The notes beneath the pieces were generated by a model. It was given only the letters and a program-made list of their open reading frames with translations. It ran no database searches and was not told the origin of the DNA. From contig JAJQHZ010000019.1 of NCBI GenBank assembly GCA_021199475.1, forward strand, positions 8,358 through 65,549: 57,192 bases of DNA, in the 5' to 3' direction. Position numbers and translations under genes: made by a program. Below, piece after piece: positions 22,850 to 54,443 of the stretch. Source of the DNA: Lachnospiraceae bacterium (lineage in GTDB: Bacteria; Bacillota; Clostridia; Lachnospirales; Lachnospiraceae). Each line of letters opens with the position of its first letter. Position 1 is the first letter of the stretch.

Positions 22850-24379
22850 CTAACGCTCCAGGCTGTCCGCGCTGGTGTATCTCGGCGCACCGCCCTGGAT
22901 CTGTTCATCCGTGTATGGCTGCGCATAGATGTAATCCGCCGGGCACGCACCCTCTGTCACCTTGTCCAGCACCGCACGCACTTTTGCAAGACCATACAGG
23001 GAAACAGCATTTTGGCTCACATCGCCGACTGTCAACCGGATACTCTCTCTCTCGATATCCGCCGACAAAGTTGCCGCTGGCAAAGCATCCGCCGATACGG
23101 TATCTGTCAACAGCGTATCGGCCGACACAGCCCCCGCAGGAGAATCCGGAGACTCATCTGCCAGCACGCCCGCAAGGGAATCCAGAGGCTCATCCGCCAG
23201 CTGTTCGCGCCACACTTTCATCGCTGTAAACCGGCTGACGGAGGCGCGGCGGAACATTGCCGCCAGCTCGTATGTGGTCAGCGTCATCAGACCGTCTGTC
23301 TGCTCTGTTTTCCCCGACAAATCATTACTGATATAAACCGCCAGAATATCCTCCTTTGGCATACCGCTCTCATCTGCATATGCTTTTCTCGCCAGATTCG
23401 CGCACATCGCCTGCAGGGTTCCCTTTCCGGAAAGGTTTTTCTTAAGCTGCGGATAATGCTTCTCCACAAGATTCACGATCGCGGGGCTCATCTCTGAAAT
23501 CAGGGGAAGAGCGGCGCCGGTTTCTTTTCTTGACTCCAGCTCTCTGCGGTCTGCCGCAAACAGTGCCGTTTTCGCCGCGGTTTCCGGATAAACACGCTTC
23601 ATGCCAAGCTTGCGCAGCATTGCGGCGATTTTCCCGAGATGATCCTCCGGTTTCTTTTCATAAAACAGCTTTGCAAAGCCCTCACCCACACCCGGCGCGA
23701 CAACCGCTACGACCTGTTTCTTTTTCTGGCGGATGATGTTCCGAAGCTCTGCGGTATCATCCTTCACGGACAGCGCTCCGGTCGGGCAGGCAGCCACACA
23801 CTGGCCGCATCCGACACAGCCAGTCTGGGCCAGCGGCAGCGGAGGCGCGACCTTTTTGTTTCGCCCGCGGTTAAATACCGCGATGATGTCCATCCCCTGC
23901 TCATGACAGGCTGCAACACATCTCTGGCAGAGAACGCACTTCGAAGTATCACGAACCAGATGCGGCGCACTTTCATCCTTAGCTGCATCCATGACATAGG
24001 GGTTATAGTCGCGCTCACTGATTCCGTATCTCCGGCAGAGTGCATGGAATTCGCAGTCAGAATATCTGCTGCACTGATCACAGATCATGCGGTGGTTTTT
24101 GCACAACATATCCAGCGTGATACGCCGGGCCTTCTGAATCCGCTCACTTTCCGTCTGAACCTCCATGCCTTCCGCCACCTTCGTCACGCAGGAAGGCACG
24201 ACGCCCCGTCTGCCAGTCACCTCCACAACGCAGATCCGGCAGGCTGCGATCTGATTGCAGTCCTTCATAAAACACAGCGTCGGGATGGTAATGCCATTTT
24301 TCGCGGCGGCCGTGAGGATGGTATCATCGGACGATGCTGTTATTCCCTGTCCGTTTATCGTCAGTTTTACTTCTGCCAT
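22850..24379 (-). CDS. [FeFe]-hydrogenase/NuoG-like iron-sulfur protein lacking H-cluster ligands
   Basis: The N-terminal third matches the electron-wire part of NuoG and HydA: a [2Fe-2S] set (C36, C47, C50, C64), the His-liganded cluster (H96, C100, C103, C109) and two ferredoxin clusters (C148/151/154/158 and C188/191/194/198). The C-terminal part aligns with the hydrogenase H-domain (APGVGEGFA, then VEKHYPQLKKNLS, then LYGLAKVRAVLDKV). However, the positions of TSCCPxW, MPCTAKK and the final CxxxC motif read ISEMSPAI, AVYISNDLSG and an AQPYTDEQIQGG stretch. No H-cluster cysteine remains, so it cannot make H2 and probably relays electrons. Residues about 396-445 are an Ala/Asp/Ser repeat insertion. 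Its ATG overlaps the NuoF-like stop (TAATG). Confidence 0.88.
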   Translation of the reverse strand: MAEVKLTINGQGITASSDDTILTAAAKNGITIPTLCFMKDCNQIAACRICVVEVTGRRGVVPSCVTKVAEGMEVQTESERIQKARRITLDMLCKNHRMICDQCSRYSDCEFHALCRRYGISERDYNPYVMDAAKDESAPHLVRDTSKCVLCQRCVAACHEQGMDIIAVFNRGRNKKVAPPLPLAQTGCVGCGQCVAACPTGALSVKDDTAELRNIIRQKKKQVVAVVAPGVGEGFAKLFYEKKPEDHLGKIAAMLRKLGMKRVYPETAAKTALFAADRRELESRKETGAALPLISEMSPAIVNLVEKHYPQLKKNLSGKGTLQAMCANLARKAYADESGMPKEDILAVYISNDLSGKTEQTDGLMTLTTYELAAMFRRASVSRFTAMKVWREQLADEPLDSLAGVLADESPDSPAGAVSADTLLTDTVSADALPAATLSADIERESIRLTVGDVSQNAVSLYGLAKVRAVLDKVTEGACPADYIYAQPYTDEQIQGGAPRYTSADSLER

Positions 24380-25794
24380 TATGCCTCACCTCCCACACTG
24401 TTTTCCTTTTTTTCACCGAATTCCTCTGGAAAGAGCCGCATCGCAGAGAGCATTACTGTCGAGGCTGCCGCTCCAAACGCGCAGCGCGCATTGTCCGTCA
24501 GATAGGTACTCATCTCGCGCAGTTCGGCTGCTGTTTCCGCCGTTCCTCTTCCTTCTGTGAGATCTGTGAGCAGACTGGCAATCTGACCGGTGCCAAACCG
24601 GCACGGCGTACATTTTCCGCAGGATTCATCCGCAAAAAATTCTGCCACATCCCGGCACAGGGCTGCCATATTCGCCTTTTGGCCGAACACGCGAATGCTG
24701 CCTGTGCCAAGCGACCCGCCTGCTGCAGCCATCCCTTCAATATCCAGCGTCGCGTCCAGCTGATCCGATCCAATCAGGCCGCCCGAGACACCGCCGCCCA
24801 CCTGCAGCGCCTTGATCTGTTTCGTGTCACAGCCGACAGCTTCCAGAACGGTGCGGATCGGGATCCCGACCGGAAATTCATAGACTCCCGGATGATCCAC
24901 GAGTCCGCAGACGGTATAAAGCTTCGTCCCCGTGTGTTTTTCTGTCCCGTATTTTCTGTACTCCTCTGGGCCTTCCCGCAGGATCAGCGGCACATTCGCC
25001 ATGGTCTCCGTATTATTAATGACCGTCGGCATCTGAAAGAGTCCGGCCACCCCCGGGAATGGCGGCTTCAGCCTCGGCTCGCCGCGCTGGCCCTCCAACG
25101 AAGACAGCAGTGCGGTCTCTTCCCCGCAGACATAAGAACCCGCTCCGAATACAACCTCTACATCAAATGCAAAATCGGTACCGCAGATATGATTCCCCAG
25201 GTATCCTTCGCTTCGGGCACGGGTTACCTCGTCCTCCAGAATCCTCCGCGCCTCTGGATATTCCGCGCGGATATATACATACCCTTTCTCTGCGCCCACG
25301 CACAGAGCACAGATCGCCATTCCTTCAATCACCGCGTGAGGGATCCGCCGCAGGATTTCTCCGTCCTTTGCAGTATCCGGCTCTCCCTCGTCCGCATTCA
25401 CGACCACATACTTGATCGGTGCGTCCACATCCTTTGTCGTTTTCCACTTCATCCCCACCGGGAATCCCGCACCGCCGCGGCCGCGGAGACCGGAAGCCGT
25501 GATTTTCTCCAGAATCCCTTCCGGATCCTCCAACGCTGCCTTCAATCCCTCATAGTCACGGGGCTGGGATAAAATCCGCCGTACCTCTCCCGGCAATGGA
25601 CGCTCCGGTACCCGGCATGACGAAACCTGTCCCATTTTACCGTGCTGAAACTTCGAATAAAAGGAAGCCGTCCCGGCCAGCTGAGAAAGAGGAATGTCAT
25701 ACTGCTTCGAGAGTGTCTCCAGCTGTCCCCGGCTAAGAGACTGCGTTTTCTCATATTCTTCCTCAAGAATCGACAAAATCTTTGTATGATCCAT
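24379..25794 (-). CDS. NuoF-like NAD(P)H-oxidising flavo-iron-sulfur subunit
   Basis: The 471-residue protein is NuoF/HydB-like: GLRGRGGAGFPVGMKW (about 102-117) binds FMN, VVNADEGEP and AGSYVCGEETAL are family signatures, and CGKCTPCRFG plus a later Cys ligate a [4Fe-4S] cluster. The first 55 residues resemble the helical start of NuoE (LSKQYDIPLSQLAGTASFYSKF), but the [2Fe-2S] thioredoxin-like domain that should follow is absent, so a partial NuoE is fused to NuoF. It would take electrons from NAD(P)H and pass them to the hydrogenase-like neighbour. GGAGGGCGGTC precedes the ATG, 12 bp after the ferredoxin stop. Confidence 0.92.
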   Translation of the reverse strand: MDHTKILSILEEEYEKTQSLSRGQLETLSKQYDIPLSQLAGTASFYSKFQHGKMGQVSSCRVPERPLPGEVRRILSQPRDYEGLKAALEDPEGILEKITASGLRGRGGAGFPVGMKWKTTKDVDAPIKYVVVNADEGEPDTAKDGEILRRIPHAVIEGMAICALCVGAEKGYVYIRAEYPEARRILEDEVTRARSEGYLGNHICGTDFAFDVEVVFGAGSYVCGEETALLSSLEGQRGEPRLKPPFPGVAGLFQMPTVINNTETMANVPLILREGPEEYRKYGTEKHTGTKLYTVCGLVDHPGVYEFPVGIPIRTVLEAVGCDTKQIKALQVGGGVSGGLIGSDQLDATLDIEGMAAAGGSLGTGSIRVFGQKANMAALCRDVAEFFADESCGKCTPCRFGTGQIASLLTDLTEGRGTAETAAELREMSTYLTDNARCAFGAAASTVMLSAMRLFPEEFGEKKENSVGGEA

Positions 25795-25806
25795 GACCGC
25801 CCTCCT

Positions 25807-26187
25807 TTACCGCCAGCCATATGGCTCTTTGAAATACGTTTTTTCAGGTCCGTCCGCCTGACCGAGGCGGAAAATCTCACCGGTTTCTTTCCGTTTAAAC
25901 AGAATACGCTGATTAATCGGAAGATGCATCTGCAGAGCGCCCGTTCTGCAGGCCTCCACGCAGCAGGCGCAATACCAGCACTCATCCGGAAAGACGACTA
26001 CCGGCGGCTTTCCGGGCTCCGGGTTCGGCATAATCGTCTGCGTCCGGCATATATTTGCACAGGCATTGCATCCCACACAGATATCCGGGTCAATGCTCAC
26101 CGCTTCCGTCGGACCGGTGGGATTCGGGACAATACAGACTTCTTCCAGCGCATTGGTAAACTCTTCCATCTTCTTTGCAGTCTCCAT
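25807..26187 (-). CDS. AprB-like ferredoxin subunit, two [4Fe-4S] clusters
   Basis: The 126-residue protein starts at 26187 with AAGGAGGG upstream; its ATG shares one base with the flavoprotein stop. Two CxxCxxCxxxC sets are present (C37/40/43/47 and C70/73/76/80), with the aromatic-rich PDECWYCACCVEAC spacing typical of the beta subunit of APS-reductase-like enzymes. Such subunits dock on the AprA-type flavoprotein and feed it electrons. No sulfate-activation gene (sat) is near, so a true APS reductase is unlikely; the pair probably reduces an organic acceptor. Confidence 0.9.
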   Translation of the reverse strand: METAKKMEEFTNALEEVCIVPNPTGPTEAVSIDPDICVGCNACANICRTQTIMPNPEPGKPPVVVFPDECWYCACCVEACRTGALQMHLPINQRILFKRKETGEIFRLGQADGPEKTYFKEPYGWR

Positions 26188-28223
26188 TATAATCCCTCCT
26201 TCGCTTCCCCTGCCCCACAGCAATTCTGCATGGACGGCTCCTCCTGCTCCTGTACCCCGCGGCAGGACACCTCTTTCGCGCGGCATCTCTCGTAATTTTC
26301 CAGATATGTCGGCGCATTTTTCCCTTTCAGCCAGTATTTGGGTTCCTCGTAGGTCGTCCGAAGCTCTCCGTCTACCTGCTGATTGAATATGTAGGTACCC
26401 TCCGGCAAATCGGATTTGTCTGTTTTTATTTTCACAATGCATGCCTGCAAAAACATTTCGGATACTGTAATGCGGCTCTCGTCCTCCATCAGGCGCGCCA
26501 GCTCATGCGGATTCCGCGCGTAGGTCATCTGCATCTCACTTTTTTTGATGCTGTCCAGCCAGCTTAACCCCTGCTCCAGGATCGGTATCGTCTTAAAATC
26601 TCCGCAGCACTGCTGCATCACGCGGGCCGAACCGCCCCACAGCTCTTTCCAGCTTACATAGGCCTTCGGATCCCCGGCGCGTTTTACCGGTGCATATACC
26701 CGGTCAAATTCCGCCTGAAGCTGCTTCTGGTCAATTCCTCCGCGTTCCACGCCGTCACTGAATTCAGCCGCGCGGTTCCCGGCATAAAATCCGGATGAGC
26801 ACGCATAAGAGCAGCCCTCCAGCCCGCTCGAGGCGCCGGCCACAAACAGTCCGTCCAGACTGCTCATCAGATTCCAGTCCACCGCCGGTTCTCCCTGACA
26901 GCCGAAGGTTTCCGATCTCCACGGCTTTGCGGCATTCGGCTCTCCCTGGAACCAGCCGCCGGACAGATAACCTTCCGGAACCATAATCGGCGCCATCAGC
27001 ATATCGGTATCCGGGTTAAAGCCCTCACGCGTGTATAAATCATAAATGGTATAGCGGCTCTTGCCCTCATTTCCAATCATAACGCCCCAGATCGAGCGGC
27101 GTTCATCCTCCGGCATCGCGGACAGATCCGCCCACAGCGGCAGTTCAAATTCGCCGCTTCGGATCCGCTCCGGCAGATCATGAATCAGGTTCGGCGGTGC
27201 TACTGACTTCAGGACATCGCTGATGGTCGAACCGCAGTAGGCCTGATGCTCGGTCGGCAGGTTCCGCGCCTCTATACTGGTCAGGATTTTTCCGTCCGCA
27301 TCCTCCCACGGCACTTCTTTTCCATTGTTATCGACAATCGTGCATGGGAACCAGGTATTCGACGGATTTCCTACGCCAAAGCGCGGCCACGCAAATGGAT
27401 GCGCCGCCTTTGTATTTCCGGCCTTGTGCATGCCAAAGACCTTCGCTCCCGCCTTCCAGGCCATCGCCAGACCGTCTCCGATGTCATTCGGATCCCAGCG
27501 GTAGCTGTTTCCGGTAATCTCTGTACTGTAGGTCCAGATCGTACAGGCATAGCCGCTTGAAATGATCGTACTCTTCGCGCTGAACACGTAAAACTCGCCC
27601 GTCTCCATGGATAATCCGGTCGCACCAATCACCCGCGCGCCGCATTTCCCACCCTCGGTCAAAAGGCTGGTCACCATCACACGCTCATACAGCTGTGCGC
27701 CCTCACGTTTCAGGCCTTCATAGATGACCGGCTTGATATACTGCCCGCCTCTCAATTTCACCGCTACCAGGTCTTTATAATTGTAAGCCTTCAGAAGATT
27801 CGTCTTCTCATCCAGCGTTGCAGTCCCTGTAAAATCGCCGTCAACGTCCCGAATCGGAAGTCCCAGCTTCTCCAGCTCCATCAGAGCATCCCAGGTTCCC
27901 TTCACTGCAATATAATCGCGGTGTCCCTGACGGGCAGATGTATTTCCTTTTTCCAGGTTTTCCTCCGGGCTCATCGGAGAGCCTTCATAATTTAACACAT
28001 TATTCCAGTGATCCATCCCGGCTCCGCCGCAGCCGCTGCGCTTGATCGGCGCCTTATCCACGACAGCTACACTGCAGCCCCGGCGTACGGCTCCGAGCCC
28101 CGCACAGCCGCCGGCCAGTCCGCCGCCAATCACCAGTACATCCACTGTGACCTGATTCACTTTACCGTAGTGCACCGGGTATGGCCACGCCAGGCGTTTC
28201 TGGGCACTTGCCTGATATTCCAT
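26187..28223 (-). CDS. AprA/fumarate-reductase-type FAD oxidoreductase
   Basis: About 678 residues from the ATG at 28223, which has GGGAG in good position. A GxGxxG dinucleotide-binding segment (VLVIGGGLAGGCAG) lies about 30 residues from the start, followed by KRSGCGGAGMDHW and the C-terminal GLEGCSYACSSG, resembling adenylylsulfate reductase alpha and related fumarate-reductase-family flavoproteins. With the AprB-like ferredoxin, NuoF-like and hydrogenase-like subunits it forms an apparent NAD(P)H-driven reductase in the cytoplasm. The acceptor is unknown; absence of sat and qmo genes argues against APS. A promoter lies at 28352-28381 and a dispersed hairpin repeat occupies the leader. Confidence 0.88.
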   Translation of the reverse strand: MEYQASAQKRLAWPYPVHYGKVNQVTVDVLVIGGGLAGGCAGLGAVRRGCSVAVVDKAPIKRSGCGGAGMDHWNNVLNYEGSPMSPEENLEKGNTSARQGHRDYIAVKGTWDALMELEKLGLPIRDVDGDFTGTATLDEKTNLLKAYNYKDLVAVKLRGGQYIKPVIYEGLKREGAQLYERVMVTSLLTEGGKCGARVIGATGLSMETGEFYVFSAKSTIISSGYACTIWTYSTEITGNSYRWDPNDIGDGLAMAWKAGAKVFGMHKAGNTKAAHPFAWPRFGVGNPSNTWFPCTIVDNNGKEVPWEDADGKILTSIEARNLPTEHQAYCGSTISDVLKSVAPPNLIHDLPERIRSGEFELPLWADLSAMPEDERRSIWGVMIGNEGKSRYTIYDLYTREGFNPDTDMLMAPIMVPEGYLSGGWFQGEPNAAKPWRSETFGCQGEPAVDWNLMSSLDGLFVAGASSGLEGCSYACSSGFYAGNRAAEFSDGVERGGIDQKQLQAEFDRVYAPVKRAGDPKAYVSWKELWGGSARVMQQCCGDFKTIPILEQGLSWLDSIKKSEMQMTYARNPHELARLMEDESRITVSEMFLQACIVKIKTDKSDLPEGTYIFNQQVDGELRTTYEEPKYWLKGKNAPTYLENYERCRAKEVSCRGVQEQEEPSMQNCCGAGEAKEGL

Positions 28224-28269
28224 ATCGCATGTCTCCCTTCCCGCAGTACTGCCTGTACTGCTTTTTTTA

Positions 28270-28322: not shown

Positions 28323-28351
28323 AAATAAAATTGACTAAAGCTGTTTCCTAT

Positions 28352-28381: not shown

Positions 28382-28432
28382 TTCCAATTTCATCCTCTGG
28401 ATTCCGGTATGGAAATCCGGAAAAAAGAAAAC

Positions 28433-28464: not shown

Positions 28465-28491
28465 AAATTTTCCGAAACAGGACGGAAAATA

Positions 28492-31092
28492 TTATCTGTG
28501 CTGTGCCAGCAGCCATTCCCGTGCCGCCTCCAGCTGATAGGTCAGCTCCCAGCCTCTATTATGATGCTGTATCATCGGATGAGCTTCCCCGTCATCCGGG
28601 AACGCCGTCTCTTTATCAAAAATAACATAGACCACCTGCGCATTTGCCGGTGCTACAGCTGCAGCCCGTGCATTGTTCACTTCCCAGCCATCCTGATAAT
28701 TCAAATGGATGCGGTTCACCGGCACACCTTTTGCGGCGAGTCCGTTTGTGATCGCGTTAAAGCTCGGAAATTCCTTCAATCCTCCTGAGCTTAAACCGAA
28801 GAAGAATTTCTTTTTCGTCAGGGACGTCATTTTTTCCAGATCCCAGTGTGCAGAAACCAGCAGGGACGCCGCGAAATAATCCGGATAGCGGCAATTCAGC
28901 TCACAGGATGCCATACAGCCCTGTGACTGACCGGTCGTGTAGACCCGATCCGGATCGACATTGTTTTCCGCCACGATCTTATCGAGCAGTTCTTTGATCG
29001 TCTCCAGCTCCGGCGCACAGGTATATTCATCGGTTGTCAGCGCGATTTCTCTCGGAACCTGGATGGCGAGCACATAGCAGGGGCGCTTCTTCTGCTCCTC
29101 CGGCTGTGCCCAGATCGTCGCTCCGATCCCCTGCGCGAGCGCAATCTTCGGATCCGATCCGTTCACGCCCGCGTCCGGAATAAACATCACAAGCGGATAT
29201 TTCTCCCCGGGCTTCTGTCCCTTTGGAGTATACAGGTTATATGGAATCGACCCGTACTGTCCCTGTACAAAATCATCAATCACCGGCTCGATTTTCTGGG
29301 AAGAGACATAAGTCCCGCTGCCCGGGATCTCCACCGTTACCTGTACCGGCAGCAGCTTGACGGCCGGGAATTTTGGTCCTCGTCCCTTTCCTCCGGGACC
29401 ACCCGGACCTCCGGGACCGCCTGGACCTCCAGGGCCGCCTGGGCCTCCAGGACCACCTGGGCCTCCGGGGCCTCCGGGGCCGCCTGGGCCTCCAGGACCG
29501 CCTGGGCCTCCAGGGCCATGTTCAATTGGCGGTATCAAAAAAGATGCCCGGTCTTTTTCAGACAGGTTCAGCACGACTGCATGATCATATACCTCGCGTG
29601 AAAGAATCGTGCGGTCTTTTACCGTAATACGATCAATCTCCTCACGTTCCGGCATAGGATCGCTGAATTCAATAATGGCCTTTGTAATCCGTTCTCCATC
29701 CGGTCTGGATTCTCCGACCGCTGTAATGGTCGGCTTCCCCGATGTACTCATGGCTATTCCCCCTTTTTTCATGGCAAGCAGCTCCTCTTTGGCCGCTTCC
29801 ACCCATTTTTCCGCGCTTCCGGGCATCAGCATAGAGTTCTGGGATTCCCAGGTCACCCGCTCATAAGCCGAAAGATCCGGCATATATTTCATCCCGCCAT
29901 TTACCATACTCATCAAAAGTGTATGCGCATAGGGAGATACTTCCCATAATTCCTGTTCGGTGCGTACATTCGTCTCAGGTTTTACTGCTACCAGCGCGAG
30001 ATCCCCGATTGCGATAACATCTCCGCCCAATTCGATTTCTTCGCCGTCCGATTCATATACCGCCTGCTTTGTCAGGGTCACCGGAACCCGGCTTCTGGAT
30101 GGTACGGAGACGGAAAATTTCCTTCTTTTTATCACAGGCGCTTCTTCGCTGCACACAACAGAGTCAATAATTGTCGAGACTGCCTCTGCCATCTCGCAGC
30201 CCAGCCGCTCTACAATCTCCAGACCATTCTGTACACCCAGATCATATTTTCCTACCGTTCCATCCTCGTTGACAACATCTCCCCATGTCTGCTCCTTCGG
30301 CACCTGATCTCCTGCAGCGCTGACAGCAAAGAGGCAGGGAACCCCATATTTTTCTTCCAATATCCGACATGCCTCACCCGGAACATCGCTGGATACCAGC
30401 CTGGTATTTTTCTCCTGCTCCGAATTATCAATTGCACTCGGCTTAAGCCCGTAGCTGATCAGGATACCGATTGATCTTCCATCCATTCCATCTACACGCA
30501 CAACGCTCGCAGTTTTATTGGACGGGCCATCCCGATTAATTCCAATCCACCAGCCAAAAGGCGTCTCAATATCCCGGTTCGTATTTACGTCGCAGAATCC
30601 GGAGCCAAATCCAAGCACCGCTGGCTGTATGCTTTTTGCTGTCTGTTCCGCTGCCTCGGTCACTGCCTGCATAATGGCCGCGATAAACAGCTTCCTCTTT
30701 CTCGGCCCGTCAGGGTCCATCGGCGGTCTTGCGCCTTTTTTTTCATCCGGTTTGGGCATTCCCTTCGGCTTTTTGCCAGGTCTGGGACCCATCGGGATTG
30801 ATGGATCCAACGGAGCATGCGGTGTAGAAATTGCATGAGTCGCGTGAATCCAGATATTTTCCATCGCGGTTCCTGTTTTTGCACTGATTATCCGTTTACT
30901 TTCCTCCATCGCGTCATCCGGCACATTCACCAGCTCAATCGCCGCGATCGCTACACGGATGCCGCAGTCCAACACCAAAATGCGCGCATGAGGCGCATCA
31001 TGAACACCGCAAAGGCCGTCTGTGGGAAACATCTCCGCAGGGAAATGAATCTCGGCACTGCCTGCTCCTGCTTTTAACTTCACATCATCCAT
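28492..31092 (-). CDS. Ceramidase-like domain fused through collagen-like linker to alpha/beta esterase
   Basis: From the ATG at 31092 (GGAGGTAAAGG upstream) the product is about 866 residues. Residues 1-435 resemble the N-terminal catalytic domain of neutral/alkaline ceramidases, with a His-containing [14 protein letters not shown] segment. Residues about 436-520 form a small beta-rich domain. Residues about 524-565 are roughly 14 Gly-Pro-Gly triplets. The final 300 residues are an alpha/beta hydrolase with GQSQGC nucleophile elbow and a late His in HHNRGW. The C-terminal half is a paralogue of the next upstream gene and the N-terminal half a paralogue of the gene at 45376. No signal peptide is seen. 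The protein may cleave both an amide and an ester; substrates unknown. Last gene of its operon. Confidence 0.85.
29391..29520. repeat. Collagen-like Gly-Pro-Gly codon repeat
   Basis: A 9-bp periodic GC-rich tract encodes about 14 GPG triplets. Codons vary synonymously between units, so the tract is maintained at the protein level rather than being a fresh DNA expansion. Confidence 0.85.
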
Positions 31093-31120
31093 TCCTTTAC
31101 CTCCGATATCAGACTTCTGT

Positions 31121-32401
31121 TCAGTCTTTCTTCTGACTGAAAATCCATTCCCGCGCACTCTCCAGCTGATATGTCAGTTCCCAGCCCCGATTGTGATTCA
31201 GGATCTGTCCGCGTACCTTTCCGTCATCCGGAAAGATTGTCGCCGCGTCAAACACGGTATAAACAACATTTGCATTTCCCTGCGCCTCACGGATTTTCTC
31301 ATTATTAACATCCCATCCGTCGCGGTAATTTAACGATACCCGCGCGATCTGTGCGCCATTCTTTTCAAGCTCCTCCGTAATCGCATTCATTCCCGGGAAT
31401 TCCCGCATTCCTCCGGAGCTCAGTCCGATAAAGAACTTATGATCTGCGAGCTTTCCTACCCGAACCGGATCCCACTGCCCGGAGACGAGCAGCGATGCGG
31501 CAAACAGATCCGGGTACCGGCAATTCATCTCACACATAGACATGCATCCCTGGGACTGTCCGGTCGCATAGACGCGCTTCGTATCGATCGGATTTTCCTC
31601 AATTACCTTATCGATGATTTCTTTTATTACATCAAACTGGGGTGTTGTCGTATAACCGGCGCCCGTGATCGGCAGCCGGGATGGCACCTGAACCGCCAGC
31701 ACATAGCATGGGCGCCTTGCCTGCTCTTCCGGCTCTGCCCAGATAGTCGCGCCAATTCCCTGCACCAGCGCCGCGGTCGCATCCGGTCCGTTTACCGAAG
31801 CATCCGGGATAAACACCACCAGCGGATAGGTCTTTTGATCCCCCCTGTTTTCCGGGGAGAAGAGGTTGTATGGCATTCCTTTATACTCATTTTGCACAAA
31901 GTCATCAATTACCGGACACTCTGCCTGTGTGGATGTGATCTCGCCATATCCCGGAATCGTTACGGTAACCTGTACCGGACGTACCGAGCGCATCGGCGAA
32001 TCCGACCCGCGGGAGCCTCTCGGACCCGAACCATTTGGGCCTCCCGGACCTCCTGGACCTCCTGGGCCTGGACCATCTGGACCTCCTGGGCCTGGGCCAT
32101 CTGGTCCTCCCGGACCTGGACCATTTGGGCCTCCCGGACCCGGACCGCCGGGGCCTTCTCCGAAATGAGGCGGCTGTGGGAAAACCTCCGCCGCTTCGTC
32201 CGTCTCGGACAGCTGCAGGATGATCTGATTTCCTTCTGCGGCAGCAGAAAGGACTGTCCGGTCTTTCACCGTGATCGTGGCAGGATCCGGGACTTCTCCG
32301 TCGAACTGAATCACTGCCCGGTTAATTTTGGCGCCCTCCGGCCTTGCTTCCGCAATTGCGGTTATCACCGGCGCCGGACTGCTGCATTTCCCGTCGTTCA
32401 T
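31121..32401 (-). CDS. Alpha/beta-hydrolase esterase with collagen-like linker
   Basis: The 426-residue protein has a beta-rich N-terminal domain (about 1-75), a Gly-Pro-rich tract (about 79-130, units such as GPGGPDGPGP) and an alpha/beta hydrolase with GQSQGC at the nucleophile and HNRGW near the end. It is closely related to the C-terminal half of the downstream fusion gene, so the two arose by duplication. The hydrolase core resembles prolyl-oligopeptidase/PHB-depolymerase-type esterases. No signal peptide is present, so a cytoplasmic role on imported esters is likely. GGAGATC precedes the ATG; gaps to its neighbours are 16 and 28 bp. Confidence 0.87.
   Translation of the reverse strand: MNDGKCSSPAPVITAIAEARPEGAKINRAVIQFDGEVPDPATITVKDRTVLSAAAEGNQIILQLSETDEAAEVFPQPPHFGEGPGGPGPGGPNGPGPGGPDGPGPGGPDGPGPGGPGGPGGPNGSGPRGSRGSDSPMRSVRPVQVTVTIPGYGEITSTQAECPVIDDFVQNEYKGMPYNLFSPENRGDQKTYPLVVFIPDASVNGPDATAALVQGIGATIWAEPEEQARRPCYVLAVQVPSRLPITGAGYTTTPQFDVIKEIIDKVIEENPIDTKRVYATGQSQGCMSMCEMNCRYPDLFAASLLVSGQWDPVRVGKLADHKFFIGLSSGGMREFPGMNAITEELEKNGAQIARVSLNYRDGWDVNNEKIREAQGNANVVYTVFDAATIFPDDGKVRGQILNHNRGWELTYQLESAREWIFSQKKD
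32030..32160. repeat. Collagen-like Gly-Pro tract in esterase gene
   Basis: Repeated GGPxGPGP units (x = Asn or Asp) over about 50 residues, partly as 24-bp DNA repeats. It is similar in place and composition to the tract at 29391 but different in sequence. Confidence 0.8.
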
Positions 32402-32417
32402 TTTCTGATCTCCTTTC

Positions 32418-33272
32418 TCACAGTGTATTGGCGTCGTATGCCAGGCAAACGCTGCCGCACCTTTGCTCCATCATCCGCTTATTGGAAGCAGATTTTCTTT
32501 TTGCAAACCGGTTTATGCTCTCCGTATCGTTTTCCGTTTTTCCGTCCAAAACTTCATTGCAGGCCTGCAGCATATCCTTCAGAATCGCATGATCTACGGG
32601 CACATTGCTGTGTCCCCAGTAAAGCAGCGTATCTTCTTCTATTGCATCTGCAAATCTTGCCAGTCCATCCCGATACGCGGTAAGTCCCACGCGTTTCTCG
32701 GGCGGCAGTGTTGACAGCGCGGTGCGGCGGCTGAACGCATCACTGATCAGTGCGTAATTATCCGCCCGGTTCAGAAGCGCGACAGAGCCCTGGGTATGCC
32801 CCGGAATCGCATATACCTCCAGTTTCTTTCCACCAAGGTCAACCACATCGCCCTGATCGATATTTTTGTAATTCAGCTTTTCTGTCATTACGATATGCTT
32901 CTCGCAGTAAGGCTTCAGCTCCGGGTCATAGCCCTCGCGTCCAAACACATCTCCCATGCGTCTCTCATAGGAAAGGGAACCTGCAAGCAGCTCCTCATCC
33001 CTGCTGTTCATATATATATCATCAAAAAGCGATGCAGCCCCGGCATGATCCGGATGTCCATGCGCGGCAATGCAGACAATCGGCTTTTTGGTAATGCTCT
33101 CCACAACCGTGCGCAGATGATCTACTACGCCAAATCCGGTATCGATCAACGCTGCGCGTTCTTCCCCCTCAACCAGATACATATGTACAGACATATCGCC
33201 ATCCGGGCGATGGCATTCCATAATATTCCAAAGTCCTTCCCTTAACTGTTTTTTCGTGTATACTTCCAACAT
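32418..33272 (-). CDS. Metallo-beta-lactamase-fold hydrolase
   Basis: The 284-residue product has the MBL metal motif HGHPDHAG, a later PGHTQGS with another ligand His, and SDAFS for the bridging Asp. It is closest in pattern to small cytoplasmic MBL hydrolases (glyoxalase II or lactonase type). Its neighbours are another MBL protein, an FMN oxidase and two esterases, so it may hydrolyse an ester or lactone intermediate of the same pathway. It is spaced 16 bp from the esterase gene downstream. Substrate unknown. Confidence 0.88.
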   Translation of the reverse strand: MLEVYTKKQLREGLWNIMECHRPDGDMSVHMYLVEGEERAALIDTGFGVVDHLRTVVESITKKPIVCIAAHGHPDHAGAASLFDDIYMNSRDEELLAGSLSYERRMGDVFGREGYDPELKPYCEKHIVMTEKLNYKNIDQGDVVDLGGKKLEVYAIPGHTQGSVALLNRADNYALISDAFSRRTALSTLPPEKRVGLTAYRDGLARFADAIEEDTLLYWGHSNVPVDHAILKDMLQACNEVLDGKTENDTESINRFAKRKSASNKRMMEQRCGSVCLAYDANTL

Positions 33273-33348
33273 ACTGTCCCTCTCCGATTCCTGTGGATTT
33301 TTTCAGGGTTTCTCATCCTGCAGCGGTTTCCCGTCCGGCGGCACTTCC

Positions 33349-34440: not shown

Positions 34441-34606
34441 TCGAATTTCCCTCTTATCAGATCGGTTCATCTCCCGGCAATTTTTACACAGATGAGTCAT
34501 CCGGCCCCAGGTTCCTGCCCCCAGATCAGCCAGAGCCAAAATTTTGCCAAATGTGCAGGAAATGGCTCTTAAGCGCCTGTACGGGAGCTTCTTCATCCGC
34601 GGCTAT

Positions 34607-35569: not shown

Positions 35570-35663
35570 ACCATCGTCTCCTCGTATCATAAGTTCAGGG
35601 CTGCGGAACGCAGCCAAAGAACCCCTTCTCTCATCCAGCAGGCGTACCTGATCCCCCTGCCTT

Positions 35664-48601: not shown

Positions 48602-49447
48602 TTATTTTGTAATATACGAAAAACTGTCTCCGGACTGCACATATTTCATCGGAACATCCGATCCGATCACCCTTGGAAGATACTGAATCATATAGCGCAT
48701 TCCGAGCTCCTCCACATTAAAATGTCCCATCTCCAGAATGGTTTTCGGCATATTCTCCGCACAGGAATCGCGGATGTAGGCGCTCACCGTCCAGTCGATA
48801 ATTTCAAATGGAATCAGCACATCTGCCTGCTCTCTGCGCACCCTTTTGATCGTCTCATTATCCGGGATTTCTTTTTTGTTTCCAAACGGCCTTGCCCCCT
48901 GCACATGCTCACAGAAGAAGACTCTGCGCACGATGGTATCGCGGCTTCCGACTACACGGATTCCGGATATATTCAGCTTTTCCATCAGGAACTTAGCCAG
49001 TTCGGGGACCGTCGTCTGCGGAATCTCATACAGCAGCGGTTTTTTCATATCGCCAATGACATAATCCTTCCAGCCAAGCTCATTCATAATTCCGTAGAAA
49101 ATGCCGTCCGTATTCTGTCCGCCATGGCCGCCGTGAATATGGTCGTGGTCTCTGTAAACCACAATCTGATGATCTTCCAGCAGCTTTTTCTTTTCCTCAT
49201 ACACCGGGTCGCCGTTCAGCCAGTCGGTCGTGTCCTCATGACTGTAGAAAAGCGGCTCATGGCAGATGATCAGGTTGGCCTTCTCTTCGATCGCCTTCCG
49301 AATCACTTCAGTGGAGGCAAAGCAGGTCACGATAATCCCGGTGCATTCTGCCGAGGCATCTCCGATTTTTACTACATCACAGGTTTCCGGCCGCTCAAGC
49401 GGCGGGTGGAATTCTTCCAGCTTCTGAATAATTTCTGCTATTTTCAT
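48602..49447 (-). CDS. NIF3/DUF34-family metal-binding protein
   Basis: The 281-residue protein has NIF3-family marks: ICHEPLFY (H63) and, near the end, ILEMGHFNVEE, which together ligate a dinuclear metal centre in the family's toroidal hexamer. NIF3 proteins are widespread with poorly known function; GTP cyclohydrolase-like and metallochaperone roles have been proposed. This copy lies downstream of a flavoprotein-ferredoxin pair (103-bp gap), unlike the usual housekeeping location near rpoD/trmK, and is rather diverged, so it may be a pathway-specific hydrolase. Confidence 0.87.
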   Translation of the reverse strand: MKIAEIIQKLEEFHPPLERPETCDVVKIGDASAECTGIIVTCFASTEVIRKAIEEKANLIICHEPLFYSHEDTTDWLNGDPVYEEKKKLLEDHQIVVYRDHDHIHGGHGGQNTDGIFYGIMNELGWKDYVIGDMKKPLLYEIPQTTVPELAKFLMEKLNISGIRVVGSRDTIVRRVFFCEHVQGARPFGNKKEIPDNETIKRVRREQADVLIPFEIIDWTVSAYIRDSCAENMPKTILEMGHFNVEELGMRYMIQYLPRVIGSDVPMKYVQSGDSFSYITK

Positions 49448-49550
49448 GATTGTATTCTCCTTTATGTAAAAATGACTTGCTTCGTTTCAGCATTTCCTTC
49501 CGTCTGCTGCTTATTATACTGTATTCCTGCAAAATTTACCATGGAATTGT

Positions 49551-49853
49551 TCACGGCAGTTTTCCGTTTGTCAGCTCTGTCAGCACGCCCGGTTCTGTGA
49601 CTACCATGCGGTTCATCGGCGAAGTCGTCACCCCGCGAAATGCTGTGATCGGATACCCGTAGGTGTCATTTGAAATCCCCAGACAGTGTCCTTTACAGTT
49701 CAGATAACACTGTCCGCAGCTCTGGCAGTTCTCCGGATATGCCAGCACAGATTTATGTGCCGCCTCGTCAAAATAAAACACATCCAGCGGGCAGATCTCT
49801 ACACAGGTCTGACAGCCAATGCACCGGTTTAAATCAATTCTTACTACACTCAT
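49551..49853 (-). CDS. Ferredoxin-type protein, two [4Fe-4S] clusters
   Basis: The 100-residue product starts at 49853 with GGGGGAAG upstream. Two CxxCxxCxxxC sets (C11/14/17/21 and C43/46/49/53) are followed by a 45-residue tail unlike standard ferredoxins, possibly a docking extension. Its ATG overlaps the flavoprotein stop by four bases (ATGA), indicating translational coupling. It is the presumed electron donor or acceptor subunit of that flavoprotein. Confidence 0.92.
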   Translation of the reverse strand: MSVVRIDLNRCIGCQTCVEICPLDVFYFDEAAHKSVLAYPENCQSCGQCYLNCKGHCLGISNDTYGYPITAFRGVTTSPMNRMVVTEPGVLTELTNGKLP

Positions 49854-51763
49854 GATCTTCCCCCCTGGCCCCATTGTTTTTTCGGCGCTTCAAATCCTTT
49901 GATCTCCGGCTCGCCCGGGAAATAATAAATGTATCTGGAATTATATGCTTCCTCCCGGTTGCCGGCCCACTCATCCGGAAGCGGAATTTTCTCGGCAGAA
50001 ATCGTGCCGTCCACTGCCCTTCTCTGCACGATGTAGCAAAGATAGTTCTCATCATCCCGATACGGATAATCTTCCCGGTACATGCCGCCCCGGCTCTCTT
50101 TCCGCTCCAGGCTTGCGCGGAGCTTCAATTCCGCCGAGAGAACCTTATGCTTCATTTCGATGCAGAGCCTCAGATCATGGCTTGTCCCGGCCTGCAGCTT
50201 CGGCACCACATGGTCACGCATATATTCCACCTGCACCAGCGCCGCTTTGAGCGTTTCCTCACTTTTTGCCACACTGACCCAGTACGGCGCCATGATCGAA
50301 TGCAGCACATCGCGCGCCCAGTTCGGGTCAAATCCGCTCTTGCGCTTCAGCGGCTCCAGAATCTCTTCCTTCTTCGCCGCGATCTGTTCTGCCGGAACCT
50401 CAGAGAATTCCTCCTCTGCTGCATATGCTGCCGCCGCTTTCCCGGCGTGATCTCCGTCGATGGAGGTAAAGCAGGAGGTAAAACCAACGCCGCAGGGATA
50501 CGCCGCACCGGAAGGCGACGTTGCATGAATTCCATCGCCGGCTACGTAGAGTCCGGCGAGCCCGGTGGCTCCATCGGTATCCTCCAGCCCGCAGAATACC
50601 CCGGATGTCAGATGGCAGCACATACCAGTCGCCGCTCCGGCCAGCGCACTCGCCGCCACCGGCGTGCTCATTTTGCCGGAACGGATTTCCTCCGGATCTG
50701 TCTCATAGACGCGGGAGCCTCCCCGTCTGGTGTAGCTGGCGGTCGCGACATCCTGTATCTCACTTCCATCGGCCTGCGCGACGCCGTTGACCGCCTTTCT
50801 TACGCGGCCCATCGCCATAATGTTTCCCTTTGACGCCGCATAATCCACCACATTGGATTTATCCACATCGCCGCCGCAAAGCCAGATATTCTCCAGATAT
50901 TGCCAGTGATTGTCCAAAAATACATTTCCGGGCGCCTGGCTGGAGGTGGTATGGAAATCTTCAAACTCCTTCCCCATAATCGGAAGTCCGTGCTCATAAG
51001 CCATATATTCGCCGTCAAACGTATCTCCCCCGACCGGATACCCGGTCGGCTTATAGCTTCCGCCTCCGGTCGCCATCACAACGGCTTTTGCCCGGACGGT
51101 AATGACCTGACCACTCGGTACATGCAAAGCCATCACGCCGCAGATTTTCTCCGGCTGCTCCCCCTCTCTGGCGGACGCCTCACCTGCCGCGAGGCCGTTT
51201 GAAACCAGATCTCCAGGGGCGGTCACAAGATCCGTTGCCATCGTATGCTCCAGATAGGGGATTTCATATCGATCCAGAACTTCCACCCATCGTTTATGAC
51301 GGTCAAATTTATCAAACATCTCGCGGTATCCGGCAAAATCCTCCCGCTCATAAAAATCACCCGCCTCCGATGCCTTCGGATACTGGGCTAAAATTCCCCA
51401 TTCCGAAAGGCGCTGATAAATCCCTTTCGATTCCTTCAGCCAGCAGTCATACCAGCGCAGATTGCAGAGATAATCCCCGCCTCTCATCATTGCTTCTTTA
51501 AAAGCATCCTCATCATCTCCGCGCTCCGGGTCAAACCAGCGAAAGCTGGACGGCCAGGGAGACAGTCCCGAATATCCCGGTTTTCCCTTATCAAGCACAA
51601 TCACCGTCTGCCCCGCTTCCCTTGCGGATACTGCCGCGTTCAGCCCCGCAAATCCGCAGCCGATCACTGCAACGTCTGCCTGATACTGCTCCTTATAAGG
51701 GCACTTTACTTCCTTCGGCCTTGGCAGCTCCATCACGCGCGGCGCTCCCTCTTTTCCATTCAT
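49850..51763 (-). CDS. Fumarate-reductase/succinate-dehydrogenase-type FAD flavoprotein
   Basis: The 637-residue protein starts with GAAAGGAGCGC upstream. VAVIGCGFAGLNAAVSA (about 31-47) binds FAD, VVMATGGGSYKPTG and GLYVAGDGIHATSPSG are the other FAD contacts, and the C-terminal helical region is SDH-like. It differs from the AprA-like protein at 26187 throughout, so the two are not recent duplicates. With the overlapping ferredoxin gene it forms a two-subunit reductase or dehydrogenase for an unknown organic acid or enoate. There is no secretion signal or haem motif, so it acts in the cytoplasm. Confidence 0.88.
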   Translation of the reverse strand: MNGKEGAPRVMELPRPKEVKCPYKEQYQADVAVIGCGFAGLNAAVSAREAGQTVIVLDKGKPGYSGLSPWPSSFRWFDPERGDDEDAFKEAMMRGGDYLCNLRWYDCWLKESKGIYQRLSEWGILAQYPKASEAGDFYEREDFAGYREMFDKFDRHKRWVEVLDRYEIPYLEHTMATDLVTAPGDLVSNGLAAGEASAREGEQPEKICGVMALHVPSGQVITVRAKAVVMATGGGSYKPTGYPVGGDTFDGEYMAYEHGLPIMGKEFEDFHTTSSQAPGNVFLDNHWQYLENIWLCGGDVDKSNVVDYAASKGNIMAMGRVRKAVNGVAQADGSEIQDVATASYTRRGGSRVYETDPEEIRSGKMSTPVAASALAGAATGMCCHLTSGVFCGLEDTDGATGLAGLYVAGDGIHATSPSGAAYPCGVGFTSCFTSIDGDHAGKAAAAYAAEEEFSEVPAEQIAAKKEEILEPLKRKSGFDPNWARDVLHSIMAPYWVSVAKSEETLKAALVQVEYMRDHVVPKLQAGTSHDLRLCIEMKHKVLSAELKLRASLERKESRGGMYREDYPYRDDENYLCYIVQRRAVDGTISAEKIPLPDEWAGNREEAYNSRYIYYFPGEPEIKGFEAPKKQWGQGGRS

Positions 51764-51941
51764 CCTGCGCTCCTTTCGTTGCTCAAATCTGATTTATCAG
51801 TTTGTTCTCCGTTCTTCCATTCTTTTTTATCTGTATGTGATGAAAGCCAGTTTCCATTCATCCAGATGCAGTTCTGTGCCATCGTCCATTTCGCCCGACA
51901 CCATTCTGTATCTTCATCCATTTCTCGTGCGCCATGCAATA

Positions 51942-54443
51942 TCAAAACAGTTCTCCGTGCCGTGCGTGTTCTTTTACCGCCTGCGTCACCGCTGTTGTTT
52001 TATCCGGGCGCCCGATGATCACCGCCCCCTGCAGGGAGCCTCCCGCAAACCAGTACTGCTCCTGACTCTTTGAAACTTCATCCGTTACCCTTACCAGATG
52101 GCAGGGGATTTCGCTCTGTTTGCCCGGATCACCGATTGCAAACAGCGTCGTTCCAAAGCCCTCCAGATTCAGCCCGAAGATCTGAGACTGATATGCGACT
52201 TTTTCGCCCGCCGCATTTGCCCCGGCTGTGCGCCCCTGATCGGACGCCTCCGCCCAGAGCTGATAATTCACACCGTCATACTGTGCGCAGTCTCCGCAGG
52301 CATAGATATCCGGAAGATTCGTTTCCATAAACTGATTCACGACAATCGCGCGGTCTGTCCGGACACCGGCCTCCCTGGCCGCCTGTATGTTCGCCCGGTT
52401 GCCGCAGGATACGATCACAAAGTCTGCCGGGAAGGTCTCTCCCGTTTTTAACTGCACCCCGGCCGCCTGATCCTCGCCCAGGATTCCTTCGATCTGAACG
52501 CCCTCCAGACAGGCGACGCCCAGACCCGCCATCTTCTTTCGCAGCACCGCCGCGGAATCCGCATCTGCCTGGCGTCCGATGATCTGCGGAGCCGCCTCCA
52601 GAACGGTCACATGGATTCCATTTCGAAGCAGCTCATTCGCAGCCTCCAGCCCCAGGACACCGCCGCCAATCACCACCGCATTTTTCGCCTTCGGGATCCG
52701 GTTCCTGATTTTTCTGCTGTCGCCCAGATGCCGGATCGTCACAACACCTTCCTTTTCCCAGCCGCCGAACGGCGGGATGAAGCATTCCGCCCCTGTCGCA
52801 AAAATCAGGCGGTCATATGGAATCGCTTCCTTTGAAGTACGAACGATCTTCCTTTCCGGATCAACCGCTTCCGCCGATTCGCCGAGCTTCAGGCGGATCC
52901 CTTTTTCCTCAAACCATTCTGCCGGATGAATATAGAGCTCCTCCGGCGAAGCCTCCGCGATGTCCAGATTTTTCGTCAGCATCGGACGGTTAATCGGCAG
53001 ATACTCCTCTGCGGACACGATCAGAATGCTCCCCGTCCGGTCTCTCTTTCGGATGGCTTCCGCGGCACACACACCGGCTGTTCCGCCGCCCAGAATGACA
53101 TACTGTAATTCCGAATCCCGACGATACCCCGTTTCTTCCTCCTCAACCGGCACACACTGATCCAGCCCTACGCCGCATACCGGGCAGGTGCCGAGCGACG
53201 CGTCAAAAATCTCTCCGCAGACGAGACATTTTACCAGCTTCGGCTGCCTCGGATTCGGCACTTTTCTCGCACTGCAGCCGACACCAAAGCCATAATTTCC
53301 GGCATTCGTCAGGTCATTTTCCGTCAGCTCTCCTGTAAAAAAGCTATCCTGGACGCTCGTGTCAAATCCCAGAAAGTTCAGATGCGCCAGAAGCACATCC
53401 GCATTGTCCTGTATCGTGGAAAGCTTATAAAATACTGACGCCAGCTTCCCCTTACAGTCCTCCGGCCTCAGGGATGTCAGAATATCCCAGATTGCCTTTG
53501 ACGGATTCCCGCCGGAAATCGTTGTGCCAAAGAGCAGGACATCCGCGGACTGCATCCCGCGTATCACCTGATTACGGTCTTCTGCAGAGAGATTGTAGCT
53601 TGTAATATTCATCACCAGTGCTTCTCTGAGTCCCTTTTCCACCTGCCCGGCGAAATCGATGAGCTCATTGATCCCCTCATAGACAATCGCCACATTCGGA
53701 TGCTCCGCGTCCCTCCGGTCCTGCCGCTGATAATAGTCCAGCATCCGTTTCAGGTGTCCGCCTGTCACTACAGGGCCTGCGGCCGGGCAAATGGCAGCCG
53801 CATTCTGCTCCCGCACAAACGCAACTGCATTTTTTTGCTGCTCCAGTCTGCCGGCAAAACAGATGTTATCGCAGAAGTCCTTCATGCCCTGCTCCCACTG
53901 GATATCCCTTTCACTTCCAGTTTCCGGAAGTTCCAGACCACTGTACAGGGAACCAAACATAGTCGCCGTATACACGCAGTGGTCCGCCTGATCCAGCACG
54001 AACAGCTCCGGGCAGAATTTCTTATCACCGATCATTCGGAACTGAAAGCTATCCCCGGAGAGGAGCAGACTTCGACTGCTTCGGATCTCCACACTTCTGG
54101 TGTGAGCCGGCAGAAATTTCTTTAACTGATACATAACCGGATACGCTGCGATGACTTCCATCTGACTGTTTTTCTGCAAAATCTGCTGTATGGACGCTCT
54201 GCTGTTTTCCGAAGTAAATACTATCACCCGCTCAATCCGGTCTAAAGGAGCAATGCGCGCGATATTCTCTATCCAGTAACCGGTATATGCATCCGGAACC
54301 GTTCCAATCAGAGCAAACGTCTCCCCCGCCTGAACCAGATAGGAGCTCCAGGCCATGCCATTCCCGGCATAAGACTGTCCCTGGAACATGCGCAGGCCAA
54401 AATCAACCACACCGACATTCCAGACCTTATGTTTTCCGTCCAT
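51942..54443 (-). CDS. Flavodiiron-like/flavodoxin/rubredoxin/NADH-reductase fusion with degenerate diiron site
   Basis: The 833-residue protein shows, in order, a metallo-beta-lactamase-like domain (about 1-245), a flavodoxin domain (about 250-395), a short rubredoxin (C406, C409, C420, C423) and an NADH:rubredoxin-oxidoreductase-type FAD/NAD domain (GGGTAG at 452-457; YACGDCAQ near the end). Such fusions are known in clostridia as oxygen or NO reductases. Here the motif that should read HxExDH reads FTSENSRAS (76-84), and the later His position (AAGPVV) is also lost, so the diiron centre cannot form. It is probably an NADH-to-flavin electron-delivery protein for the flavoprotein downstream. 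GAGGTGG precedes the ATG. Confidence 0.88.
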   Translation of the reverse strand: MDGKHKVWNVGVVDFGLRMFQGQSYAGNGMAWSSYLVQAGETFALIGTVPDAYTGYWIENIARIAPLDRIERVIVFTSENSRASIQQILQKNSQMEVIAAYPVMYQLKKFLPAHTRSVEIRSSRSLLLSGDSFQFRMIGDKKFCPELFVLDQADHCVYTATMFGSLYSGLELPETGSERDIQWEQGMKDFCDNICFAGRLEQQKNAVAFVREQNAAAICPAAGPVVTGGHLKRMLDYYQRQDRRDAEHPNVAIVYEGINELIDFAGQVEKGLREALVMNITSYNLSAEDRNQVIRGMQSADVLLFGTTISGGNPSKAIWDILTSLRPEDCKGKLASVFYKLSTIQDNADVLLAHLNFLGFDTSVQDSFFTGELTENDLTNAGNYGFGVGCSARKVPNPRQPKLVKCLVCGEIFDASLGTCPVCGVGLDQCVPVEEEETGYRRDSELQYVILGGGTAGVCAAEAIRKRDRTGSILIVSAEEYLPINRPMLTKNLDIAEASPEELYIHPAEWFEEKGIRLKLGESAEAVDPERKIVRTSKEAIPYDRLIFATGAECFIPPFGGWEKEGVVTIRHLGDSRKIRNRIPKAKNAVVIGGGVLGLEAANELLRNGIHVTVLEAAPQIIGRQADADSAAVLRKKMAGLGVACLEGVQIEGILGEDQAAGVQLKTGETFPADFVIVSCGNRANIQAAREAGVRTDRAIVVNQFMETNLPDIYACGDCAQYDGVNYQLWAEASDQGRTAGANAAGEKVAYQSQIFGLNLEGFGTTLFAIGDPGKQSEIPCHLVRVTDEVSKSQEQYWFAGGSLQGAVIIGRPDKTTAVTQAVKEHARHGELF

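What the first reader, a model, noticed from the sequence alone, without database searches (positions are those of the whole stretch)
22850..54443. Two parallel flavoprotein-ferredoxin reductases, each beside its own NADH input built from a metal-stripped enzyme
Module A: AprA-like flavoprotein + AprB-like ferredoxin + NuoF-like + hydrogenase-like protein without H-cluster ligands. Module B: fumarate-reductase-like flavoprotein + ferredoxin + flavodiiron/rubredoxin/NADH-reductase fusion without diiron ligands. In both, a classic clostridial redox enzyme seems to have lost its terminal catalytic metal site and kept its electron-transfer cofactors. I suggest both deliver NAD(P)H electrons to flavoproteins that reduce organic acceptors.
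Basis: partly seen in the sequence, partly recalled or inferred. Interest (0 to 1): 0.85.

Follow-up and report, generated by a model that had tools for sequence, protein, structure and literature searches.

The report
NADH-fed flavoprotein complexes with gutted hydrogenase
An anaerobic bacterium seems to have turned a hydrogen-making enzyme and an oxygen-reducing enzyme into mere NADH adaptors for two flavin enzymes that probably reduce organic acids, which hints at how anaerobes may rewire old metal enzymes for new electron sinks.

Summary
Module A (22850-28223) encodes an AprA-like flavoprotein, AprB-like ferredoxin, NuoF-like protein and a hydrogenase-like protein with no H-cluster cysteine left. 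Module B (49551-54443) encodes a flavoprotein, a ferredoxin and a flavodiiron-rubredoxin-NADH-reductase fusion with six of seven diiron ligands gone. Corrections: the fusion also lost its FMN loop; NuoF carries only a NuoE stub. Module A is a tightly packed operon kept in three other genera and a near relative (close AprA: 4 of 250 family genomes, own included). In those genera the hydrogenase domain lacks the GGVMEAA segment and the L1 proton cysteine but keeps four cubane cysteines: graded loss. NuoF fits published non-bifurcating criteria (5 of 5; 26 of 26 NuoF beside the nearest ordinary HydA look bifurcating). In two genera a TRAP importer follows. Module B's flavoprotein-ferredoxin pair recurs in one other genus beside another input: a molybdenum-hydroxylase-type FAD/GltD hybrid without a molybdenum subunit on that contig. 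dN/dS below 1 argues against decay. Best reading: NADH-driven reductases of organic acids on recruited input modules. Complex, substrate and direction are inferred. New variant of a known kind.

The parts
26187..28223 (-). AprA_A: FAD flavoprotein, AprA/FrdA superfamily (678 aa)
   Evidence: FAD_binding_2; closest solved 8a8o PAPS reductase and 1jnr AprA, aligned at both ends, middle not aligned
25807..26193 (-). AprB_A: ferredoxin with two 4Cys motifs and CWxC
24379..25794 (-). NuoE stub fused to NuoF (FMN, NADH, one [4Fe-4S])
   Evidence: Complex1_51K, NADH_4Fe-4S; non-bifurcating residues
22850..24379 (-). HydA-like protein: iron-sulfur arm intact, H-cluster domain degenerate
51942..54443 (-). 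FDP_B: MBL-like and flavodoxin-like domains without metal and FMN sites, rubredoxin, NADH:rubredoxin reductase
49850..51763 (-). Frd_B: FAD flavoprotein, Frd/Sdh/Apr superfamily (637 aa)
49551..49874 (-). Fd_B: ferredoxin with two 4Cys motifs
   Evidence: sequence; 64% homolog beside the Frd_B homolog of G198
48602..49447 (-). DUF34/NIF3 protein downstream of Fd_B
   Evidence: same place in L005
47594..48457 (+). LysR regulator, divergent from module B
54530..55981 (-). MATE exporter upstream of FDP_B
   Evidence: same place in L005
35802..42711 (-). SBP5 and DppBCDF importer between the modules (38302-38877 is a Gly-Pro-rich protein); homologs at 53-80% on the contig of the G198 Frd_B homolog
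   Evidence: SBP5; DppBCDF named by eye; homologs:
28492..34596 (-). esterase-like and MBL-fold hydrolases upstream of AprA_A
   Evidence: Esterase_PHB match of 28492-31158 is below cut-off; 31121-32401 has no Pfam match
34607..35617 (-). FMN-dependent alpha-hydroxyacid dehydrogenase-like protein
   Evidence: PF01070

Best explanation
Module A is one soluble complex in which NADH reduces the NuoF FMN, electrons run through the NuoF [4Fe-4S] and the iron-sulfur arm of the hydrogenase-like subunit, then through the AprB-like ferredoxin to the FAD of the AprA-like flavoprotein, which reduces an imported or ester-released organic acid. The hydrogenase domain is kept as a scaffold (in relatives perhaps with a cubane cluster). 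Module B does the same for a second flavoprotein, with NADH-FAD-rubredoxin as input; its flavodiiron core is a scaffold only. Shown: genes, motifs, losses, conservation, selection. Inferred: complex formation, electron path, direction, substrate.
For: Quartet AprA-AprB-(NuoE-)NuoF-HydA with gaps of -41 to +12 bp in the 4 genera holding it (the -41 rests on a chosen NuoE start) and the same order in near relative G645. The four HydA-like proteins form one side of a 100/100 branch among 33 rows (the tool warns of long branches). GGVMEAA: 0 of 4 module-A proteins, 29 of 29 other HydA compared (26 TSCSP and 3 TSCCP type). NuoF: Thr/Lys, Tyr, no GGPSG in 5 of 5; control: 26 of 26 NuoF beside the 26 nearest other HydA have Phe, GGPSG and two 4Cys motifs. 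TRAP DctQMP follows the quartet in 2 of 3 other genera. dN/dS window against G645: NuoF part 0.065, AprA 0.077, Frd_B 0.057, degenerate H-domain 0.25, MBL-like 0.19, Rd 0.08, NROR 0.10. Frd_B homologs in 2 of 250 family genomes (own and G198), both with module A.
Against: No biochemistry. Module A is patchy: 1 of 9, 1 of 7 and 1 of 4 genomes in the three genera (several genomes incomplete), and the one other genome of the window's own genus in the family sample (G152) has only a 36% AprA relative, no Frd_B and no HydA-like match at the limits used. Of 15 more distant AprA relatives (34-44%), 13 have AprB next to them and 0 show NuoF or HydA in the stretch fetched (some stretches end at contig ends), so the flavoprotein family does not need this input. 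In module B the rubredoxin-to-ferredoxin step is unproven and may be uphill; the degenerate fusion was seen only in G000 and G645. Reverse flow is not excluded. The diagnostic NuoF residues were placed by motif, not by alignment to T. maritima HydB.
Confidence: 0.55

Rival explanations
1. The complexes run the other way: the flavoproteins oxidise a substrate and pass electrons to NAD+.
For: All carriers can run backwards; the quartet sits near esterase-like genes and an alpha-hydroxyacid dehydrogenase-like gene.
Against: The Frd/Apr superfamily is mostly reductive in anaerobes (recalled, not tested).
Confidence: 0.25
2. The hydrogenase-like and flavodiiron-like parts are decaying remnants and only the flavoproteins matter.
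For: Degenerate parts evolve fastest: H-domain dN/dS 0.25, MBL-like 0.19; longest tree branch for the window HydA.
Against: Values stay below 1, frames are open, iron-sulfur ligands intact, same losses in G645, operon kept in four genera.
Confidence: 0.12
3. Module A is an electron-bifurcating (Bfu-type) enzyme using ferredoxin as a third partner.
For: NuoF/HydA are BfuB/BfuA homologs and Bfu enzymes plug onto many third-substrate subunits (PMC9304861).
Against: No GGPSG, Tyr and Thr/Lys at the diagnostic sites in 5 of 5, no C-terminal 4Cys pair as in 26 of 26 controls; NuoE cysteines missing in window, G645, G229 and G103.
Confidence: 0.05
4. In the other genera the hydrogenase-like subunit still makes or uses H2 and only the window lineage is inert.
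For: Four cubane cysteines kept in G198, G229, G103.
Against: All three lack the L1 proton cysteine and the GGVMEAA segment; K358 (recalled numbering) is lost in G198 and G229, kept in G103. G198 and G103 each hold a separate ordinary HydA.
Confidence: 0.05

Closest known systems
[quoted passage not shown] PMC7311640, passages and section 17)
   Same: NuoF-type beta subunit with the non-bifurcating residues; HydA iron-sulfur arm
   Different: H-cluster lost; AprBA-type flavoprotein in place of proton reduction
Bfu family, e.g. Type 2 with BfuA lacking an H-cluster (Wor-Bfu, Bam-Bfu; PMC9304861, section 5 parts 1-2 and passages)
   Same: NuoF/HydA-type core joined to extra substrate subunits
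   Different: lacks GGPSG and the C-terminal clusters; keeps a degenerate H-domain; no AprBA-type partner in the parts read
AprBA APS reductase / MtPAPSR (8a8o; PMC10322725, passages)
   Same: flavoprotein plus 2x[4Fe-4S] ferredoxin; CWxC in the AprB-like protein
   Different: middle of AprA_A not aligned; no PF01747 ATP sulfurylase in the genome
Class F flavodiiron protein, C. difficile FDP_F (PMC6033852, passages)
   Same: domain order MBL-flavodoxin-Rd-NROR
   Different: 6 of 7 diiron ligands and the FMN loop lost
Cyanobacterial Flv1/Flv2 (PMC4390876, passages)
   Same: flavodiiron proteins without canonical metal ligands
   Different: other domain layout and partners; FMN site there not examined

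Membership tests
[FeFe]-hydrogenase | H-cluster cysteines (L1, L2, L3 motifs) | tested here: not met
   0 of 5 in window; four kept in each of 3 other genera. The C300 column is Ser in 26 of 29 other HydA compared, so it is not diagnostic alone
[FeFe]-hydrogenase | GGVMEAA segment of the H-domain (role recalled) | tested here: not met
   0 of 4 module-A proteins versus 29 of 29 other HydA
[FeFe]-hydrogenase | N-terminal iron-sulfur arm | tested here: met
Bfu electron-bifurcating family | BfuB with extra clusters B2-B5 and GGPSG motif | tested here: not met
   0 of 5 module-A NuoF have GGPSG; 26 of 26 controls do
AprBA / APS reductase | AprB with 8 Cys | tested here: met
   20 of 20 AprB-like proteins found; CWxC in 12 of 20; none found for L058
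AprBA / APS reductase | AprA substrate domain | tested here: inconclusive
   only the two ends align to 1jnr and 8a8o
AprBA / APS reductase | sulfate activation by ATP sulfurylase PF01747 | tested here: not met
   no match in G000; CysDN type not tested
Fumarate reductase / succinate dehydrogenase (Frd_B) | active-site His positions and the arginine of the NRLG stretch (roles recalled) | tested here: not met
   His271 and His384 align to His of 7d6v, the Arg aligns to Tyr
Class F flavodiiron protein | seven diiron ligands | tested here: not met
   1 of 7 kept; 26 of 26 other genes keep the motifs
Class F flavodiiron protein | FMN phosphate loop | tested here: not met
Class F flavodiiron protein | rubredoxin Cys4 and NADH reductase domain | tested here: met
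any of these | catalytic activity | not testable with these tools
   needs purified protein

The most novel reading that the evidence does not exclude
Apr/Frd-type flavoproteins of this family repeatedly recruit NAD(P)H input modules by gutting metalloenzymes: an [FeFe]-hydrogenase (four genera), a class F flavodiiron protein (window lineage) and a molybdenum-hydroxylase-type FAD/[2Fe-2S] unit without its molybdenum subunit (G198), with intermediates caught mid-way (hydrogenase domains that may hold only a cubane).
Probability: 0.35. Interest if true: 0.78.

Novelty: new variant of a known kind. Interest (0 to 1): 0.6.

Why it matters
It would give a NADH-linked, cytosolic way to dump electrons on organic acids, built from parts that look like hydrogenase or oxygen reductase. 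Such genes are easily misread: the window protein still scores 94.4 bits against the Pfam hydrogenase domain (cut-off 22.1), which could inflate predicted H2 metabolism. The graded loss of H-cluster residues makes the step from hydrogenase to electron adaptor testable.

Tried and rejected
The single-protein scan of genome contigs found only L005 and a weak L006. Literature: 10 searches; among the titles and abstract starts listed, none described an AprBA-type flavoprotein with NuoF plus an H-cluster-less HydA, or a class F fusion without diiron ligands next to a flavoprotein; the library is partial, so this is not proof of absence. The motif search TSCSP gave 5 unrelated papers. Plasmid search with AprA_A: 51 records, all under 60% identity, none covering 80% of the query; the 8 listed have 24-32% identity. 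A single-sequence fold of AprA_A had mean pLDDT 31.4 and was discarded; no fold search was made. My first regex for ordinary HydA motifs was too narrow (0 of 30) and was replaced by the alignment. The first bifurcating control failed (the two ORFs chosen matched neither the NADH nor the FMN motif); it was replaced by the 26 loci, where the Thr/Lys pattern was not read (regex gave no match) but the Tyr/Phe and GGPSG tests worked. Promoter/terminator scans: a terminator-like (28444-28427) and a promoter-like (28381-28352) minus-strand site lie between the esterase-like gene and AprA_A, so the quartet may be its own unit; promoter-like sites there are no more frequent than in shuffles. An earlier count said all diiron ligands were lost; the right count is 6 of 7. 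The bit-score gap (676-820 for module A, next 455) is partly by construction, since the model A3 was built from those rows.
Full report
Names. L005, whose fusion protein is 91% identical, is titled Lachnospiraceae bacterium, so I take G000's family (f1) to be Lachnospiraceae; G645 is the genome behind L005. G645 is called a near relative; its rank is not told.

Observation. The ORFs of both modules are at the stated places. Pfam and NCBIfam give hydrogenase C-terminal domain plus NuoG-type iron-sulfur domains, NuoF, 4Fe-4S ferredoxin and FAD_binding_2 for module A, and FAD_binding_2/Succ_DH_flav_C, ferredoxin and pyridine-nucleotide reductase for module B; of the 25 of 72 NCBIfam matches listed for the fusion, only flavorubredoxin NF008887 (59.5 bits, cut-off 635) covers its N-terminal half.

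Loss of the H-cluster. Against the genome's own other HydA (L004), the window protein has M297-S298 at the L1 pair, D353 at the L2 cysteine and Q487 and D491 at the L3 pair, while the cysteines of the [2Fe-2S], the His-Cys3 cluster and the two [4Fe-4S] clusters are kept (CpI names of residues recalled). G645 (HydA 90%) has the same state. The three other genera with the operon (G198, G229, G103) keep the four cubane cysteines but lack the L1 proton cysteine, and all four genera lack the GGVMEAA segment that 29 of 29 other HydA compared keep. K358 is lost in window, G198 and G229, kept in G103. So the loss is graded. A result that cuts the other way: the 26 nearest family HydA have TSCSP, i.e. 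Ser in the column of the second L1 cysteine, so that single site is not diagnostic.

NADH input. The NuoF-like proteins of window, G645, G229, G198 and G103 show the residues that Losey et al. (PMC7311640; section 17 read) give for non-bifurcating enzymes: Thr and Lys near the NADH site, Tyr near FMN, no GGPSG (5 of 5, placed by motif). As a control, 26 of 26 NuoF-like ORFs beside the 26 nearest other HydA have Phe, GGPSG and two 4Cys motifs. The extra clusters that define Bfu enzymes (PMC9304861, section 5 parts 1 and 2 of 3) are thus absent in module A. G198 has a separate NuoE with its cysteines; in the window the NuoE part is a stub with one Cys in 80 residues.

Conservation of module A. 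AprA_A at E<=1e-60 matched 14 of 250 family genomes, 4 of them (own included) at 64-100% identity. In all 4 the order AprA-AprB-(NuoE)-NuoF-HydA is kept with gaps of -41 to +12 bp (the -41 depends on the start chosen for NuoE). Of the 10 other family loci (34-38%), 0 show NuoF or HydA in the stretch fetched (L059 and L062 are short contigs), 9 have AprB next to AprA (not L058), and 5 sit beside Dpp importer genes (L056, L057, L058, L060, L063). In the phylum 7 of 398 genomes matched at E<=1e-80 (own included). The closest (G455, 56%) has AprB next to AprA, but its contig ends there. The other five (37-44%) show no NuoF or HydA in the stretch fetched, and 4 of 5 have AprB adjacent. Within the three genera the module is in 1 of 9, 1 of 7 and 1 of 4 genomes, and G152, of the window's genus, lacks it, so it is accessory. 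In G229 and G103 the quartet is followed by DctQ, DctM and DctP of a TRAP importer and preceded by a divergent LysR-like gene. TRAP importers carry mostly carboxylates (recalled), hence the inferred organic-acid substrate.

Module B. Of 250 family genomes 2 hold Frd_B at E<=1e-40, own and G198; of 398 phylum genomes own and a weak G382 (33-34%). In G198 the Frd_B homolog (43%) is followed by a 64% Fd_B homolog, a 166-aa Fer2-type [2Fe-2S] protein and a 791-aa protein that combines a molybdopterin-dehydrogenase FAD domain (PF00941, PF03450) with a GltD-like part (PF14691, PF07992). The whole contig was fetched in two overlapping stretches; its only ORFs of 600 aa or more are these 632-aa and 791-aa ones, so no molybdenum subunit (700 aa or more as a rule, recalled) lies on it; other contigs were not searched for one. 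The same contig carries SBP5 (53%), DppB (77%), DppC (70%), DppD (72%), DppF (80%) and esterase-like homologs (37-39%); another contig carries the module A operon, a NIF3 (44%) and MBL-fold genes (25-31%). Thus the surroundings are shared while the input module differs. G198 is not among the 90 of 250 genomes with a match to the fusion at E<=1e-30. The fusion is degenerate in window and L005 only; 26 of 26 other fusion genes checked keep ligand motifs and FMN loop.

Selection. Nei-Gojobori dN/dS between G000 and G645: AprA 0.077, NuoF part 0.065, HydA iron-sulfur part 0.176 (only 3 and 5 changes; low dS), degenerate H-domain 0.25, Frd_B 0.057, MBL-like 0.19, flavodoxin-like 0.12, Rd 0.08 (2 and 7 changes), NROR 0.10, Fd_B no amino-acid change. 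The gutted parts are relaxed but not neutral; the NuoE stub (0.62 on 2 and 1 changes) says nothing.

What it is not. AprA_A aligns with AprA and the methanogen PAPS reductase only at its two ends (PMC10322725, passages); no PF01747 ATP sulfurylase was found. Frd_B keeps two histidines of the Sdh/Frd active site but not the arginine (roles recalled).

Mechanism. Most likely NADH -> FMN -> FeS arm of HydA-like subunit -> AprB -> AprA FAD -> organic acid for module A; NADH -> FAD -> rubredoxin -> (Fd_B) -> Frd_B FAD for module B. The carriers are read from motifs; assembly, direction and substrate are inference. Esterase-like hydrolases around the modules would fit release of an acid from an ester, but the substrate is open.

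Verdict. A real, conserved and unusual arrangement; not categorically new, because H-cluster-less HydA homologs (Bfu Type 2) and ligand-poor flavodiiron proteins (Flv1/Flv2) are known. New, as far as my searches show, are the pairing with Apr/Frd-type flavoproteins, the graded loss and the exchange of input modules.

Noticed in passing
L122-L147 (26 family loci): The HydA proteins nearest to module A carry TSCSP instead of TSCCP in the L1 motif, 26 of 26; a search for this motif name gave nothing relevant.
   Followed up: partly
L056, L057, L058, L060, L063, L092, L095: Remote AprA-like genes sit beside Dpp/SBP5 importer genes, suggesting a wider family of importer-linked AprAB-like enzymes with unknown substrates.
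   Followed up: partly
28492-31158, 45376-46656: Two proteins share an N-terminal domain that looks by eye like neutral ceramidase (no Pfam match for it); the first is fused to an esterase-like part through a long PGG repeat linker.
   Followed up: no
38302-38877: Gly-Pro-rich repeat protein with a Cys-rich C-terminus between the importer genes.
   Followed up: no
L094: AprAB-like pair between a transporter and what look by eye like butyrate kinase, phosphotransbutyrylase and indolepyruvate oxidoreductase genes.
   Followed up: no
L092: AprAB-like pair near what look by eye like two uroporphyrinogen decarboxylase-type and two enolase-superfamily proteins.
   Followed up: no
19451-21184: AMP-ligase-like ORF (by eye) with a long Ser/Asn-rich repeat insert.
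   Followed up: no
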